The position numbers were made by a program, and so were the translations under genes. A stretch of 39,082 bases of DNA from Chamaesiphon sp. 341R_metabat_111 (GTDB taxonomy: Bacteria > Cyanobacteriota > Cyanobacteriia > Cyanobacteriales > Chamaesiphonaceae), in the NCBI GenBank assembly GCA_025351825.1, contig JANXVE010000064.1, forward strand, positions 1-39,082, written 5' to 3'. Below are positions 6,795-38,161 of this stretch, one piece after another. The notes under the pieces were generated by a model. That model had not been told where the DNA came from. It saw nothing but the letters and a program-made list of their open reading frames with translations, and did no database searches. Position 1 is the first letter of the stretch. Each line of letters starts with the position of its first letter.

Positions 6795-8237
6795 GTGACA
6801 GTCAGAGTTCGCATCGCTCCTAGTCCTACTGGAAACTTACACATTGGTACCGCTCGTACCGCTGTTTTCAACTGGTTGTTTGCCCGTCACAATGAGGGGA
6901 AATTTATCCTGCGAGTTGAAGATACCGATACCGAACGTTCCAAACCTGAATATACTCAAAATATCCTCGATGGGATGAAATGGCTGGGCTTGAATTTTGA
7001 TGAAGGGCCATTATTTCAATCTCAACGCCTAGATTTATATCGTCGATCGATCCAAACTTTATTAGATAATGGTAGTGCCTATCGTTGCTATACTAGCACT
7101 GCCGAACTTGACGAACTCAGAGCTGCACAAGAAGCCAGCAATCATGCTCCCCGCTACGACAATCGCCACCGCAATCTCACCCCAGCACAGATAGCCGCAT
7201 TCGTCGCTGAAGGTCGTCATCCGGTAATCCGGTTTAAGATTGAAGACGATCGAGAGATCGGTTGGCTGGATTTAGTTAGAGATAAAGTCACCTGGAAGGG
7301 TACTGACTTGGGTGGAGACATGGTGATTTCCCGCGCTGCTGAAGGCGAAGAACTGGGACAACCGCTCTACAATCTCGCCGTAGTCGTAGACGATATCGAC
7401 ATGCAAATCACCCATGTAATTCGCGGTGAAGATCATATTGCCAATACCGCCAAACAAATATTGCTGTATGAAGGCTTGGGTGTAGCAGTGCCAACATTTG
7501 CCCACACGCCCCTGATTTTGAGTCCAGAGGGCAAGAAACTATCCAAGCGTGATGGTGTAACTTCGATCGATGATTTCAAGCAGATGGGCTATATTGCCCC
7601 AGCCTTGGTTAATTATATGACCCTGTTGGGCTGGTCGGCTCCCGATGCTCAGGAGCTATTTACCCTCGATGTTGCTGCTGGGATGTTTGATTTCGATCGA
7701 GTCACCAAAGCTGGTGGTAAATTTGACTGGGACAAACTCAACTGGATCAATAGTCAGTACATCCACGCCATGCCTGCCGAAGAGTTGATGCCTCAATTGA
7801 TTCCCTACTGGCAAGCCGCTGGGTTTCAACTAGATGCCGACGCAAATCGCGCCTGGTTGCTCCAACTCACCAGCCTCATCGGTGCCAGCCTCGAACGTCT
7901 CGACGGCTGCGTCGAAATCAGCCGCACCTTCTTTACCCCCACAGTAACGCTGAATGAAGAAGCCACCGCCAAAGTCACTCAGCCTGGAGCTAAAGAAGTC
8001 TTAACTAGTCTCCTTGCAGCGATGAAAGCCACTCCAGAATTGAGTGCGATCGAAGCCCAAGAGCTAATCAAACAGGTGACAAAAGAGCAAGGGGTCAAAA
8101 AAGGTCTGGTGATGCAAAGTCTCCGCGCTGCCCTCACAGGGGAAGTTCACGGTCCAGATCTAATTCAATCTTGGCTGTTACTACACCAACATCAGTTAGC
8201 AGTGGCTCGAATCGAACAGGTTCTCGCATCGCTCTAG
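6795..8237 (+). CDS. gltX: Glutamyl-tRNA synthetase
   Basis: The 480-aa product charges tRNA(Glu), feeding both translation and, in cyanobacteria, tetrapyrrole synthesis through glutamyl-tRNA reductase. The class I signatures are present: [14 protein letters not shown] (HIGH motif, residues 16-19) and GKKLSKRDG (KMSKS-type) near residue 247. The catalytic domain also shows [10 protein letters not shown] and [14 protein letters not shown], and a helical anticodon-binding domain follows. The start is GTG at 6795, chosen because the catalytic motif begins a few residues later; no ribosome binding site is obvious. It ends about 35 bases before a strong hairpin and is convergent with the HNH gene. 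Confidence 0.95.
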
Positions 8238-8272
8238 ACTGCCACTCATAGCAGCCGTCATCTTGGTTAGGA

Positions 8273-8307
8273 CACAAACCCGACTTTTCCAAAAAGTCGG
8301 GTTTGTG
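8273..8307. terminator. Perfect hairpin terminator repeat, copy 1
   Basis: CACAAACCCGACTTTT (8273-8288) and AAAAGTCGGGTTTGTG (8292-8307) pair without mismatch around a three-base loop. It lies between the stops of gltX and the HNH gene, so it can serve both. A nearly identical sequence occurs at 29016-29048 and a shorter relative at 35707-35733. Confidence 0.75.
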
Positions 8308-8314
8308 GCTAGCA

Positions 8315-8989
8315 CTAATCTCCTAGATGATTGCGATACATTTTCTCCTGTTTGAGCAAGTAGATGATTACCTGACAATAAGGCTGATGCTGACCTTCTT
8401 CATCTGTGCAACTGTAATAGTGAATTAACTTATCGATCTCATCATCAGACAAGCTTGATAAAAAATTTGGTTCGTCGTAAAAACTATCGATCACTCCTTC
8501 TCTCCCTGCTTGCAGCTTGGGGATATTTAATCTCAATCTCTCGATCGTTTCTGTTGCGGCGACTGCTTTATCTATTCTGCGCGTTGGCAAAATTTCACCA
8601 ATATCTGTATACTCAAAAAAATCTGCACAGTCACCGATTAGCGGCGATACTAGTAATTCCTCATCAAACCAATCACTTTTACCCATCCCACAATGTATTG
8701 GGTGTTTCTTGGGAATCTTTTGCTGGCAGGAAGCCAGTAGATTGAAATAATCTAGTTCTAAATGTCTATAATCTGTCTGTGGCTGAAAATGTTCGATGTG
8801 ACTATCCGCCTGAACGATGCGTTCGCCACAATAACAACAAATATGACCTTGTTCGGTAATTAAATGGTGATGGAGTTGCTGCTTATCCTGACCTCGTAAT
8901 TCCTCATAACTGGGGTGCCAATCTTCATTCGCTTGTGCTTTAAAATTCGCCAAAGCTTCTGGCTCATTAGTCTTAGCAATATACTTCAC
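8315..8989 (-). CDS. HNH endonuclease, PtuB-like (TIGR02646 type)
   Basis: The 224-aa product has the zinc-binding and catalytic layout of the TIGR02646 HNH proteins found as PtuB in Septu defence systems and in some retron modules. CCYCG is at residues 51-55, HIEHFQP at 64-70 (catalytic His region), YFNLLASC at 81-88, and a further CG at 100-101. The start overlaps the stop of the ATPase gene by four bases (ATGA), so the two are translationally coupled. Together they match the ATPase plus HNH arrangement of PtuAB, which degrades nucleic acid on phage infection. No reverse transcriptase or retron RNA gene is visible next to it. The defence role is inferred from family and gene order. Confidence 0.82.
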   Translation of the reverse strand: MKYIAKTNEPEALANFKAQANEDWHPSYEELRGQDKQQLHHHLITEQGHICCYCGERIVQADSHIEHFQPQTDYRHLELDYFNLLASCQQKIPKKHPIHCGMGKSDWFDEELLVSPLIGDCADFFEYTDIGEILPTRRIDKAVAATETIERLRLNIPKLQAGREGVIDSFYDEPNFLSSLSDDEIDKLIHYYSCTDEEGQHQPYCQVIIYLLKQEKMYRNHLGD

Positions 8990-10284
8990 CGACCGATAAT
9001 CTCCCGCCGTTTAATTGTCGCTTCCGCTTTCACTAGTTCTGGCTCATTAATGCCGATTCGATCGCCTAATTCTCTCACAATTTCCTTGGCAGCTTCTAGA
9101 TCGTTATTATTGATAGTTCTGAATAGTTCCAGCATCCGTTCTTGAATTTCTTGCGGACGTTTCGAGACACCAAGGATATCTTCTAAGATTCGATTGCTAT
9201 CAAGTCCATAGGAACTCTCTGGACGTTTGACAACGACGTTATCACCATCATAATCGAGGATGTGAATACACTCAGGATCTACGTGGCTGAGGACTTGCGG
9301 TGAGTGGGTTGTAACGATGAATTGACAGTTGGGGAATGTTTTGGTCAGACGTGGAATTATCATTCGTTGCCATTCGGGATGAAGGTGTAATTCTATTTCG
9401 TCAATTAGTACGAGGGCGGAAGCTTCTAGAGAATTTACTAGATTTGGATTATATTCAGATAGTCTTCTTGATAAGTGACCAACCATCGCCAATAAGTTCT
9501 TCTCGCCATCAGATAGTAATTCTAATGCTATTTCCTTCCCCAATTTTCTAATAGTCATTTTATCTAACACTCTCTTGAATGTTAAGTTGTCATAACTTTC
9601 TCCCAACAGTGAGTATGTTGCCTGTCTGACTGCTGTAAGTATTGGATGGCGATATCCAATATCATCAGACAACCTATGTTCATTTTCTAAATTTTCTATC
9701 TCTTTAAACCATCTAGAAAAGTCTTCAAAATTGACAATATGTTCAAATCCCATCTCTGTGGGCATCATCAAATCTATCACTTGTCGGTTCGACAAGTAAT
9801 AAAAACAGCTATTTGTCAGCGGCTCTCTGCTAAATATTTCAGCACCTTGGGGGTTTTTATATATCTCCCTGCTATTAGTTGCAATGATCTCTCTTGATTC
9901 ATCATATATATTTTTCCAAAGCTTATTGTCACTATCTTGTTTGAACTTAGATATCTTCCATTCTAACTCTTGGTTATTCAATTCAACTCTTATCTGATTT
10001 AGAGTACTATTAGCATCAATGTGAATATCTGATATTGATAACAAGTTTTCACGATCGCGAAAAAGATCTTCATTCTGATATAAATAGAAATGTTCAGATA
10101 CAGTATCAACCGTATCATAAACAGTTTTGTGGAATTTGATTAGAGCATTGATACAATCTAGAATACTAGATTTTCCAACGCCATTAATACCCGCTAAAAT
10201 AATGACATTGTGTGCTGTATTAAATACTAGCTTTAGATCTTTAATTCCACGAAAGTTGTGGAGTTTTAATTCTTTAATACGCAT
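8986..10284 (-). CDS. AAA/ABC-type ATPase, PtuA-like
   Basis: The 432-aa product is an SMC/RecF-like ABC ATPase. Walker A is GINGVGKS at residues 32-39, an ABC-signature-like LLSDGEKNLL lies at 256-265, Walker B is VLIDEIE at 292-298, and the H-loop region TTHSPQ is at 325-330. The start RIKELKLHNFRGIKDLKL is typical of OLD/RecF-type ATPases. The insert between Walker A and the signature (about 45-250) is family-specific. It is the first gene of a two-gene operon with the HNH nuclease, as in Septu. The DNA from about 9,500 to 10,300 looks more AT-rich than its neighbours, which would fit acquisition by transfer. An OLD-family ATPase without TOPRIM is the alternative description. Confidence 0.82.
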   Translation of the reverse strand: MRIKELKLHNFRGIKDLKLVFNTAHNVIILAGINGVGKSSILDCINALIKFHKTVYDTVDTVSEHFYLYQNEDLFRDRENLLSISDIHIDANSTLNQIRVELNNQELEWKISKFKQDSDNKLWKNIYDESREIIATNSREIYKNPQGAEIFSREPLTNSCFYYLSNRQVIDLMMPTEMGFEHIVNFEDFSRWFKEIENLENEHRLSDDIGYRHPILTAVRQATYSLLGESYDNLTFKRVLDKMTIRKLGKEIALELLSDGEKNLLAMVGHLSRRLSEYNPNLVNSLEASALVLIDEIELHLHPEWQRMIIPRLTKTFPNCQFIVTTHSPQVLSHVDPECIHILDYDGDNVVVKRPESSYGLDSNRILEDILGVSKRPQEIQERMLELFRTINNNDLEAAKEIVRELGDRIGINEPELVKAEATIKRREIIGR

Positions 10285-10348
10285 GATTCAATAAACTGAA
10301 TTGATAGAATGCGATCGATCTCAACACATTACTAATAACATTGATGGC

Positions 10349-10378
10349 GTTGGGTTTCATTCTTCAACCCAACCTACG
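10349..10378. terminator. Hairpin repeat at the thiG stop
   Basis: GTTGGGTT (10349-10356) pairs with AACCCAAC (10366-10373), immediately before the thiG stop codon on the minus strand. The sequence is a copy, in inverted orientation, of the repeat at about 5702-5727. It may end thiG transcription; there is no long T-tract. Confidence 0.45.
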
Positions 10379-11171
10379 AATTAATTGTGCCCGTTGTGGG
10401 CGAACTTGCTGTCGCCATTTTCGAGATGGGAATTCTACCTGCGAGGTAGCCTAATCGTCCCGATACCGTAGCCATCCCCATCGCTTGCGCCATCAGGGCG
10501 GCATTCTCAGCGCAGGCGATCGCAGTGTTGATCAAAAGCGCATCTGCACCGAGTTCCATCGCTTGAGCGGCTTCGCTGGGGCTACCAATTCCAGCATCGA
10601 CGACGACGGGGACTTTGGCATTTTCGATGATGATTTGGATATTGGCTAGATTTCGGATGCCTTGACCCGATCCGATCGGCGAACCCAATGGCATGACGGT
10701 CGCGCAACCTGCTTCTTCGAGCCGTTTGGCTAGGAGCGGATCGGCATTTATGTAGGGGAGTACGGCAAAGCCCTCTTTGACTAGCTGTTCGGCTGCCTGA
10801 AGGGTACCGATCGGATCTGGCAATAGATATTTACCTGCGGGAATTACTTCTAGTTTGATGAAGTTATTATCTTCCTGTCCCAATAATTTGGCCATTTCCC
10901 GTCCCAATCTGGCTACTCGCACCGCATCTTCGGCGGTTTCACAGCCAGCAGTATTTGGCAGCATCCAGATCTTAGACCAATCGATCGCTTCTGCCAAGCC
11001 TTCATGTCCAGCGGCTTTGGTTTGGACTCGCCGCACGGCAACGGTGACAATTTCACAGCCACTAGCGATGATGCTCTGCTGCATTTCGGCGATGCTGCGA
11101 TATTTGCCTGTACCCGTCATCAGTCGGGATTTGAAGGTTTTACCAGCGATGATTAGGGGTTTGTCGGTCAT
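10374..11171 (-). CDS. thiG: Thiazole synthase
   Basis: The 265-aa product is a TIM-barrel ThiG, which builds the thiazole phosphate half of thiamin from deoxyxylulose phosphate, dehydroglycine and ThiS-thiocarboxylate. Typical segments are [12 protein letters not shown] at the N-terminus, [38 protein letters not shown] (bearing the lysine expected to form the Schiff base), and [20 protein letters not shown] near the C-terminus. It is a stand-alone enzyme; in some cyanobacteria ThiG is fused to ThiO, which is not the case here. thiS and thiO are not adjacent, and thiC lies 5 kb away on the other strand. The leader is a run of CCACCATCCACTATCC repeats ending at the ATG. Confidence 0.93.
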
Positions 11172-11205
11172 GAATTGGTGGATAGTGGATGGTGGATGGT
11201 GAGGG
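11172..11205 (-). repeat. C-rich repeat in the thiG leader
   Basis: On the sense (minus) strand the leader reads as repeats of CCATCCAC and CTATCCAC that end directly before the ATG, with almost no G. The polarity is the same as for the other start-proximal arrays in the window. Confidence 0.6.
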
Positions 11206-11218
11206 TAAACTGACTTCG

Positions 11219-11313
11219 GCGGAGATCTTTACCCCACCCCAACCCTCCCCTTGTAAAGGGGAGGGAGCCGGAAAAGCCCCCTTTCCAAGGGGGTTGGGGG
11301 TAAAGATCTCCGC
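11219..11313. repeat. 95-bp element with terminal inverted repeats, copy A
   Basis: The ends form a perfect 17-bp inverted repeat, GCGGAGATCTTTACCCC at 11219-11235 and its complement at 11297-11313. Inside are two further hairpins, one around CCCTCCCC/GGGGAGGG and one around CCCCCTT/AAGGGGG. There is no reading frame. The same structure, inverted, occurs at 26462-26553. Fragments of the ends are seen near 17,790-17,820 and 24,318-24,340. It looks like a non-autonomous MITE-like or palindromic repeat. Confidence 0.75.
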
Positions 11314-13850: not shown

Positions 13851-13886
13851 GCTAAACCACTAACAACCAAACCACTAAACCACTAA
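13851..13886 (-). repeat. TGGTTTAG-type array after the dnaK stop
   Basis: On the dnaK sense strand the sequence just after the stop is repeated TTAGTGGTTTAG, rich in G and T and nearly free of C. This is the reverse polarity of the arrays at start codons. Confidence 0.65.
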
Positions 13887-15800: not shown

Positions 15801-16242
15801 AATACTTTAACTACTTCCTAAATAATGACAAGAATTTGGATAATGACAACGAGTGCTGGATCGCGCTCGCATGATTAATTGATATTACATATTAATCCCT
15901 ATATTCGCGCCATCTGAGACTCTTCAAAAAGGGTGGTTTTCCGTACCCCTTCTGTGGCTAACGGTCAATTGCTAGCTGGCTCGTTTGGTACCTCTCTACT
16001 TTATGTGAATTACACCAATACCGAAATTGAGGCGAACCGTATAGAGTAGTGGTGCTTACCGAAGGAATTGCTGGGCGTGGGTGCTTTGGGGCATGGGTGC
16101 CTGGGTGAAAGCAAGATACAAGTGTTTCCTATCTTCCGTACTCCCGCACCCCCGTGTTCCCACGCTCCCAAGCACCCAAAGGTGAACTTATCTTCACGTA
16201 CACCCCAAACTCAGTCGTAAATGTTAGAATCTATAGCCATAG
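15801..16242. other. Divergent non-coding region between dnaK and thiC
   Basis: I see no gene here. It should hold the dnaK promoter on the left and the thiC promoter on the right. Positions about 16071-16182 contain degenerate octamer-like repeats: G-rich on the left (GGGTGCTTTGGGGCATGGGT) and C-rich on the right (CTCCCGCACCCCCGTGTTCC), together a large imperfect inverted repeat. The C-rich side faces outward on the sense strand of each flanking gene. Confidence 0.5.
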
Positions 16243-17734
<1,492 letters not shown>

Positions 17735-30655: not shown

Positions 30656-31336
30656 ATGAATTACGAACAGCCGCAGCCCGAATCCGAATCAGAAACCACC
30701 TCAGAACACCACGATAAATTTGCCGCAGACGGCAACAACGCCGATCCAACACCTAAAGATGAAAATCCGTGGGTAGAGACTCTAAAAACAATTGGATTGA
30801 GTGCTGTGCTGGCATTGGGGATTCGGGGTTTTGTAGCTGAGGCGCGTTACATTCCGTCTGGTTCGATGCTACCAACATTACAAATTAACGATCGATTAAT
30901 TATCGACAAAATTAGCTACCGCGTCACCAATCCCGTTCGTGGTGATATTGTCGTTTTCAACCCTACTGCCCAATTAGAAAGTGAAAAAGACGATGATGGC
31001 AAGCAGAAGTTCAACGAAGCTTTCATCAAAAGAGTAATCGGTTTACCAGGCGATAAAATTGATGTCAAAGGCGGTAAAGTTTACATCAATGGCAAAGTTA
31101 TCGTTGAAAAGTATCTGGGTGAAGCTCCCCAATACAACTGGAGTAGCACCGAACTAACACCCGATGGAATTGTCCCTGAAGGTCACTATTTAGTATTGGG
31201 TGACAACCGCAACAATAGCTATGATAGTCACTACTGGGGCTTTGTACCCAAAGAAAAAATCGTCGGCAAAGCAACAGTTAGATTTTGGCCAATTAATCGT
31301 GCAGGTGGCATCAATCCGCAGCCGGATTATAAGTAG
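30656..31336 (+). CDS. lepB: Signal peptidase I
   Basis: The 226-aa product removes signal peptides from exported proteins at the plasma or thylakoid membrane. The catalytic serine is in IPSGSMLPTL (Ser70) and the general-base lysine in FIKRVIGLPGDK (Lys125). The final box LVLGDNRNNSYDSHYWGFVP is typical. An acidic, disordered N-terminus of about 38 residues precedes the single membrane span (TIGLSAVLALGIRGF). The start at 30656 is the first ATG after a 200-base AT-rich upstream region. Cyanobacteria usually have two such enzymes; which one this is cannot be told. Confidence 0.94.
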   Translation: MNYEQPQPESESETTSEHHDKFAADGNNADPTPKDENPWVETLKTIGLSAVLALGIRGFVAEARYIPSGSMLPTLQINDRLIIDKISYRVTNPVRGDIVVFNPTAQLESEKDDDGKQKFNEAFIKRVIGLPGDKIDVKGGKVYINGKVIVEKYLGEAPQYNWSSTELTPDGIVPEGHYLVLGDNRNNSYDSHYWGFVPKEKIVGKATVRFWPINRAGGINPQPDYK

Positions 31337-31376
31337 GTGGGGGATTGGGGGACTGGGGGACTTGGGGACTGGGAGA
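31337..31376 (+). repeat. G-rich tandem repeat after lepB
   Basis: Units of GGGGGACT and GGGGACTT begin at the lepB stop and contain few C residues. It is the G-rich partner of the C-rich leaders, here on the sense strand after a stop. Confidence 0.65.
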
Positions 31377-31385
31377 GATTAATTG

Positions 31386-31435
31386 CTAAACCACTAAATC
31401 ACTAAACCACTAAACCACCAAATCACTATCCACTA
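31386..31435 (+). repeat. CTAAACCA heptad array before the DUF72 gene
   Basis: Six to seven degenerate copies of CTAAACCA/CTAAATCA end five bases before the DUF72 ATG. The tract has no G in 50 bases. No ribosome binding site is present. Confidence 0.72.
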
Positions 31436-38023: not shown

Positions 38024-38097
38024 TGGGGGTGTGGGAGTGTGGGAGATAGGGGGACTTGGAGACTGGGGGACTGGGGGACTGGGAGACTTGGGGAAAG
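38024..38097 (-). repeat. C-rich (sense) tandem repeat in the ribH leader
   Basis: The plus strand reads GGGGGACT, GGGAGACT and GGGAGTGT in degenerate tandem; on the ribH sense strand it is C-rich, ending within a few bases of the ATG. The unit is the same as in the natD and lepB arrays. Confidence 0.7.
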
Positions 38098-38161
38098 AGG
38101 TAGATCGGTTGCGGTTGAGACAATACAGTCATCCTAGCAACCGATTGAGGAGATTGGTAAT

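What the first reader, a model, noticed from the sequence alone, without database searches (positions are those of the whole stretch)
8315..10284. Septu-like ATPase/HNH defence operon in a housekeeping region
A PtuA-like ABC ATPase and a TIGR02646-type HNH nuclease overlap by four bases. Walker A, signature, Walker B and H-loop are intact, as are the nuclease Cys/His/Asn positions. The operon sits between gltX and thiG, bounded on one side by a portable hairpin repeat and on the other by another dispersed repeat, and appears more AT-rich than its neighbours. It may be an active, recently acquired defence module.
Basis: partly seen in the sequence, partly recalled or inferred. Interest (0 to 1): 0.55.

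Follow-up and report, generated by a model that had tools for sequence, protein, structure and literature searches.

The report
Septu anti-phage gene pair in Chamaesiphon
Two adjacent genes in what is most likely a Chamaesiphon cyanobacterium look like an intact, ordinary Septu (type I) anti-phage system sitting between two housekeeping genes where one close relative has nothing, so this is a new member of a known defence family rather than something new.

Summary
In detail: ptuA (8986-10284, minus strand, 432 aa) and ptuB (8315-8989, minus strand, 224 aa) overlap by four bases, with the named motifs intact. Profile searches, fold comparison and the absence of a reverse transcriptase on the contig place the pair in Septu type I. 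The host is most likely a Chamaesiphon. One genome of the genus (G008) has gltX and thiG adjacent, 135 nt apart, without Septu, so the pair is accessory at this site. Two other genomes of the genus carry a related pair (PtuA 65%, PtuB 72-73% identical) at two further sites, with a shared ~40-nt upstream block.

'Recently acquired' is not shown. The three copies in the genus and one family-level copy form one clade that branches like their hosts. All four are AT-rich against their flanks, and codon usage (tested for this copy) is not foreign. The thiG-side repeat is also in the empty site, so it did not come with the operon.

Likely mechanism, by homology: the PtuA ATPase restrains the PtuB nuclease until infection. 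Whether it cuts DNA or tRNA-Tyr cannot be told here. New member of a known kind; low interest.

The parts
8986..10284 (-). ptuA, ABC/SMC-type ATPase of Septu type I, 432 aa, ATG start
   Evidence: PADLOC PtuA PDLC00271 E 1.6e-110 over residues 1-430; structure model pLDDT 82.2 matches E. coli Septu PtuA 8eea_C at Z 34.2, rmsd 4.4, 398 aligned
8315..8989 (-). ptuB, HNH nuclease of the TIGR02646 family, 224 aa, GTG start overlapping ptuA by 4 nt
   Evidence: PADLOC PtuB PDLC00346 E 2.1e-70; TIGR02646 99.9 bits, cut-off 52.15; structure model pLDDT 91.3 matches E. coli Septu PtuB 8eea_G at Z 20.9, rmsd 3.4, 210 aligned
10285..10324 (-). upstream (probable promoter) block that accompanies ptuA at three different chromosomal sites
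   Evidence: -45..-1 alignment to G004 and to G005: 0 of 2000 simple base shuffles reach the score in either case; no sigma-70-like hit falls here
8274..8306 (.). dispersed hairpin repeat between convergent gltX and ptuB; probable bidirectional transcription end (inferred)
   Evidence: RNA fold of 8238-8314: z -5.81 and -4.80 on the two strands; 25 distinct genomic sites counted by hand; the terminator scan did not list it
10353..10377 (.). dispersed repeat reaching into the thiG stop codon, independent of the Septu insertion
   Evidence: 107 genomic matches at up to 3 mismatches; present in the empty site of G008
8237..10328 (.). segment without a counterpart in G008 (2092 nt here, 91 nt there)
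   Evidence: blastn blocks 7161-8236 and 10329-11240 of the window align to G008 C123 1-1076 and 1168-2075

Best explanation
This is a complete Septu type I system of a Chamaesiphon-like cyanobacterium. Inferred from homologues: PtuA (ATPase) and PtuB (HNH nuclease) form a complex held inactive in healthy cells. [quoted passage not shown] Shown here: two intact, overlapping genes, conserved catalytic residues, fold and family membership, no reverse transcriptase on the contig, and an accessory location. Not shown: expression, trigger, target, antiphage activity. The pair is an accessory cassette that occupies different chromosomal sites in different genomes of the genus, with a ~40-nt upstream block; the inserted segment has room for little beyond ptuA and ptuB, so it carries no recombinase of its own.
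For: Family. PDB sequence relatives: Ec83 149.1, Ec78 120.2 and E. coli Septu 8ee4 119.3 bits for PtuA; 22bv 41.1, 8ee7 36.9 and Ec78 36.6 bits for PtuB. Folds. Conserved residues. Walker A/B and H/N residues of this kind are needed for Septu EcB88 immunity (PMC13096335, passages). No RVT_1 match on contig C151; the three matches in the assembly lie on C73, C19 and C12. Empty site in G008. 3 of 9 genomes of the genus carry a match at E<=1e-20, at different sites.
Against: NCBIfam's retron Ec78 PtuA and PtuB equivalog models match below their cut-offs (242.6 of 500; 122.7 of 150), as expected of a non-retron Septu but also a sign of divergence. By sequence PtuA's best solved relative is a retron PtuA (Ec83), and by Foldseek E-value retron chains rank above E. 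coli Septu for PtuA (8eea at rank 7). Identity to the solved E. coli Septu proteins is about 22-28%. No Pfam family matched PtuB at E<=0.1. No sigma-70-type promoter was found in the 40-nt upstream block. Activity is untested.
Confidence: 0.88

Rival explanations
1. Effector half of a type I-A retron (Septu type II) whose reverse transcriptase and msDNA lie elsewhere or were lost.
For: PtuA's best PDB sequence match is retron Ec83 (149.1 bits) and its best Foldseek hits are retron chains; the PADLOC retron ATPase_I-A and HNH_I-A models also match.
Against: No RT on the contig; the three RVT_1 matches of the assembly are on other contigs. The retron equivalog cut-offs are not met. In the Z-scored second look E. 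coli Septu chains rank first for both proteins, but within 1 of retron chains, so tied. No Rfam family but a TPP riboswitch reached its threshold in the window; whether Rfam holds a model for this retron RNA was not checked.
Confidence: 0.05
2. Non-functional remnant or repurposed housekeeping ATPase-nuclease pair.
For: Other relatives show decay: one in-frame stop each in PtuB matches of G020, G085 and G132 and in a PtuA match of G131.
Against: Both frames are full length with the catalytic residues intact; patchy presence (58 of 148 genomes for PtuA at E<=1e-20, 51 of 148 for PtuB at E<=1e-10) does not fit housekeeping.
Confidence: 0.07
3. Within Septu: PtuB of this system cuts host tRNA-Tyr, as in Septu EcB88 and retron-Eco7, rather than DNA as reported for Septu of E. 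coli ATCC 25922. (This is a question inside the best explanation, not an alternative to it.)
For: A standalone Septu with tRNA-Tyr cleavage is published (PMC13096335, abstract and passages).
Against: Sequence does not discriminate: PtuA scores 120.2 bits against Ec78/Eco7 (tRNA-Tyr) and 119.3 against 8ee4 (E. coli Septu; that this is the DNA-targeting ATCC 25922 protein is recalled). Retron-Eco4 PtuAB, from the same subfamily and the best match here, likely does not target tRNA (PMC11555353, passages).
Confidence: 0.45

Closest known systems
Septu type I (PtuA-PtuB), E. coli (PDB 8eea, 8ee4)
   Same: ATPase and HNH pair; whole-length fold match (PtuA Z 34.2, rmsd 4.4, 398 aligned; PtuB Z 20.9, rmsd 3.4, 210 aligned); no RT.
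   Different: About 25-26% identity over those alignments; cyanobacterial chromosome; target unknown.
Retron type I-A / Septu type II (Ec78 = Eco7, Ec83 = Eco4)
   Same: Homologous PtuA and PtuB with the same folds.
   Different: No reverse transcriptase on the contig; PtuA is 432 aa rather than 542-550; retron equivalog cut-offs not met.
Septu EcB88 (E. coli JBBDAGI-19-0041)
   Same: Standalone ptuAB with Walker A/B and H/N residues required for immunity (PMC13096335, passages).
   Different: Shown there to cleave tRNA-Tyr; nothing known here. I had no EcB88 sequence to compare.
PtuAB of Chamaesiphon sp. 336R (G004) and GL140_3 (G005) MAGs
   Same: Closest relatives found: PtuA 65% identical, PtuB 73% and 72%; shared 40-nt upstream block.
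   Different: Lie at other chromosomal sites: DUF2288/ureC in G004; in G005 ptuA ends a contig that carries a phosphoketolase gene, and ptuB lies beside an uncharacterised ORF on another contig.

Membership tests
Septu type I | PtuA-family ATPase | tested here: met
   PDLC00271 E 1.6e-110; fold match to 8eea_C
Septu type I | PtuB-family HNH nuclease adjacent to ptuA | tested here: met
   PDLC00346 E 2.1e-70; TIGR02646 over its cut-off; 4-nt overlap
Septu type I | No reverse transcriptase beside ptuAB (which would make it type II / retron I-A) | tested here: met
   RVT_1 matches in the assembly only on contigs C73, C19 and C12, none on C151; the definition of type II as RT-containing is from PMC8565338 (passages)
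Septu type I | Intact catalytic residues (Walker A K, Walker B D/E, HNH H and N) | tested here: met
   K38, D295/E296, H67, N83, invariant in both alignments
Septu type I | Protects against phage | not testable with these tools
   needs a plaque assay
Retron type I-A | Reverse transcriptase in the operon | tested here: not met
   no RVT_1 match on the contig
Retron type I-A | msr-msd RNA in the operon | tested here: inconclusive
   no Rfam retron family reached its threshold in the window, but whether Rfam models this type was not checked

The most novel reading that the evidence does not exclude
The Septu unit of this genus (about 40 nt of upstream DNA plus ptuA and ptuB, ~2.0 kb) may relocate between intergenic sites without any recombinase of its own, using the over-represented CGATCGAT/GATCGATC octamers as recombination points. 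The shared upstream block contains GATCGATC (10313-10320), the empty site of G008 has CGATCGAT two bases from the point where homology resumes (sequence printed), and only about 1.9% of 30-nt stretches of the window hold such an octamer. This is a single junction seen after the fact.
Probability: 0.06. Interest if true: 0.5.

Novelty: new member of a known kind. Interest (0 to 1): 0.15.

Why it matters
It adds a clean, intact cyanobacterial Septu with a natural empty site and two near relatives at other sites, useful for asking how small defence gene pairs move and whether the tRNA-cutting or the DNA-cutting mode applies outside E. coli. It does not change the picture of Septu.

Tried and rejected
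Retron membership: rejected for lack of an RT on the contig.

Repeats as ends of a mobile element: rejected for the thiG-side repeat (present in the empty site). The hairpin was not found, at up to 7 mismatches, in the seven stretches looked at: the Septu regions of G004, G005 (two contigs), G010 (two) and own C33, and the empty site of G008.

Codon usage as a sign of foreign origin: ptuA 1.144 and ptuB 0.996 negative log-likelihood per codon against 1.152 +/- 0.055 for 25 reference ORFs, so not foreign-looking.

Plasmid or phage carriage: 17 plasmid records (E<=1e-30) and 7 phage records (E<=1e-10), all under 60% identity, no close relative.

TTGAGATCGATC as a Septu-specific box: rejected as specific, since it occurs 53 times in the genome.

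Upstream homology: the -90..-46 block is not shared with G004 (821 of 2000 shuffles as good) and is borderline with G005 (18 of 2000); G010 shares neither block (784 and 962 of 2000). The shuffles are simple base shuffles.

Direction of change at gltX-thiG (gain here or loss in G008) could not be decided, since only these two genomes were seen to have the two genes adjacent.

A published account of a cyanobacterial Septu was looked for in listings only; the papers listed were not opened for this, except PMC13096335.

Rows dropped: the tree left out duplicate loci and hand-named fragments, rows under 150 bits and rows under 380 aa; one own-genome row (L081) entered twice, giving 50 rows of which 49 differ; its bootstrap had not settled. 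The alignments used 22 PtuB and 23 PtuA rows picked by hand, the window plus some of the 46 loci; weaker and truncated ones were left out, so 'invariant' holds for those rows.

Papers: PMC13096335 and PMC11555353, abstract and found passages; PMC8565338, found passages; others, search listings only. The Li 2024 Septu paper (PMC12318543) is not held, so its DNA-target result is taken from passages in PMC11555353.

Full report
Observation. The window holds two minus-strand ORFs, 8986-10284 (432 aa, ATG) and 8315-8989 (224 aa, GTG), overlapping by four bases. Motif positions are PtuA Walker A 32-40, LSDGEK 257-262, Walker B 292-296 and His327; PtuB CCYC 51-54, HIEH 64-67, Asn83, Cys88, Cys100. 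The H67-N83 spacing of 16 equals that of the H75/N91 pair shown to be needed in Septu EcB88 (PMC13096335, passages). These residues are invariant in hand-picked alignments of 23 PtuA and 22 PtuB rows.

Identity. PADLOC: PtuA1 (PDLC00271) E 1.6e-110 over nearly the whole protein; PtuB1 (PDLC00346) E 2.1e-70. NCBIfam: TIGR02646 99.9 bits against a cut-off of 52.15; the retron Ec78 PtuA and PtuB equivalogs score under their cut-offs. Pfam gives AAA_21, AAA_15, SMC_N and others for PtuA and nothing for PtuB at E<=0.1. AlphaFold2 models (pLDDT 82.2 and 91.3) match E. coli Septu and type I-A retron PtuA and PtuB over nearly their whole length. By Foldseek E-value PtuB's best hit is E. coli Septu 8eea_G, while PtuA's first six are retron chains with 8eea at rank 7. 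In the Z-scored second look the E. coli Septu chains rank first: PtuA 8eea_C Z 34.2, rmsd 4.4, 398 aligned; PtuB 8eea_G Z 20.9, rmsd 3.4, 210 aligned. Retron chains lie within 1 of that and count as tied. Fold therefore places the pair in the PtuAB family but does not part Septu from retron; the reverse transcriptase does. Of three RVT_1 matches in the assembly none is on this contig. By the PADLOC definition (PMC8565338, passages) it is Septu type I.

Host. The window is a whole contig (C151) of a 4.06-Mb, 202-contig assembly. The genus is therefore most likely Chamaesiphon (inference).

Accessory location. In G008 the gltX and thiG homologues lie on one contig with 135 nt between them and no ptuAB. 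Window segment 8237-10328 (2092 nt) is replaced by 91 nt there. In the genus, 3 of 9 genomes (own, G004, G005) have a PtuA match at E<=1e-20. The six without one include G001, G007 and G008, which are 77-89% complete, so their genome-wide absence is uncertain; the empty site in G008 is contiguous and firm. In G004 the pair sits between a DUF2288 gene and ureC. In G005 ptuA runs off the end of a contig that carries a phosphoketolase gene, and its last residues with ptuB start another contig, beside an uncharacterised ORF (P0002); that the two pieces are one gene is inferred. The G004 Septu stretch aligns to eight ureC loci of seven other genomes of the genus only within and just around ureC, and the G005 ptuB stretch aligns to the P0002 loci of the eight other genomes only from positions 830-872 on, that is at or after the end of ptuB; these loci held at most about 1.5 kb of flank, some less. 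So neither of those sites holds ptuAB in the others. Among 148 genomes searched (own included), PtuA matches 58 (E<=1e-20) and PtuB 51 (E<=1e-10).

History. PtuA of this window is 65% identical to those of G004 and G005 (for G005 over residues 1-403) and 52% to that of G010; GltX of the same genomes is 94%, 86% and 73% identical. In a PtuA tree the own and G004 proteins pair (99/94), G005 joins (100/99), then G010 (100/100): the order of host kinship. Low GC is shared: G004 0.356 against 0.451 in its flank; G005 ptuA 0.343 against 0.462 and ptuB 0.382 against 0.461; G010 0.408 against 0.469. Codon usage of this copy does not deviate. A long-resident family lineage that changes site, or moves between close relatives, fits better than a recent arrival from afar. 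Gain here or loss in G008 is undecided.

Boundaries. The 45 nt before ptuA are similar in own, G004 and G005 (0 of 2000 simple base shuffles as good for each of the three pairs), while farther upstream own and G004 are unrelated (821 of 2000) and own and G005 borderline (18 of 2000). Similarity to the empty site of G008 resumes at 10329. The unit is thus roughly 8315-10324. A GATCGATC octamer lies in the shared block and CGATCGAT lies at the matching place in G008. These octamers are common in this genome (35 strand-wise CGATCGAT in the window; about 1.9% of 30-nt stretches hold one of the set), so this is only a hint. The 33-nt hairpin (8274-8306) between convergent gltX and ptuB folds strongly on both strands and is dispersed; the terminator scan did not list it. 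The repeat at the thiG end is also in the empty site.

Mechanism. From homologues: PtuA and PtuB are solved as a complex (8eea), and the ATPase and HNH residues are both needed (PMC13096335, passages). Published targets differ: DNA, particularly phage genomic DNA, for Septu of E. coli ATCC 25922 (as told in PMC11555353); [quoted passage not shown] Similarity scores do not choose between them. That infection changes the PtuA nucleotide state to release PtuB is recalled and inferred, not shown here.

A second Septu. The same assembly holds a distant PtuA-PtuB pair on contig C33, between the specificity and restriction genes of a type I restriction-modification operon. The same gene order, with PADLOC PtuA (1.5e-161) and PtuB (5.3e-96) matches, is on a conjugative Enterobacter plasmid.

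Verdict. An intact, accessory Septu type I system; new member of a known kind; low interest.

Noticed in passing
G000:C33 (locus L081 4181-12823): The same genome carries a second, distant PtuA-PtuB pair (34% and 33% identical to the window's) inside a type I restriction-modification operon: HsdM-HsdS-PtuA-PtuB-HsdR. A conjugative Enterobacter plasmid (NZ_CP072963.1, locus L173) shows the same order beside Tn7-like genes, its two middle genes matching PADLOC PtuA and PtuB (PtuBs 28% identical). So Septu nested in a type I RM operon occurs in two phyla. One listing search was run for prior accounts and its papers were not opened.
   Followed up: partly
window 16235-16346: TPP riboswitch directly upstream of thiC (16349-17734).
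   Followed up: no
window 31330-31429, 38032-38112, 13854-13886: Arrays of 8-nt units (GGGGGACT-like and ACCACTAA-like) repeated at several distant places of the window.
   Followed up: no
whole window: The commonest octamers are TCGATCGA and CGATCGAT types, while the HIP1 octamer GCGATCGC (name recalled) occurs only 5 times.
   Followed up: no
L086 (G010:C45): Another family-level PtuAB pair lies next to a Cas3-like helicase gene.
   Followed up: no
G020, G085, G132 (PtuB); G131 (PtuA): Matches with one in-frame stop each, suggesting decay of Septu in other cyanobacteria.
   Followed up: no
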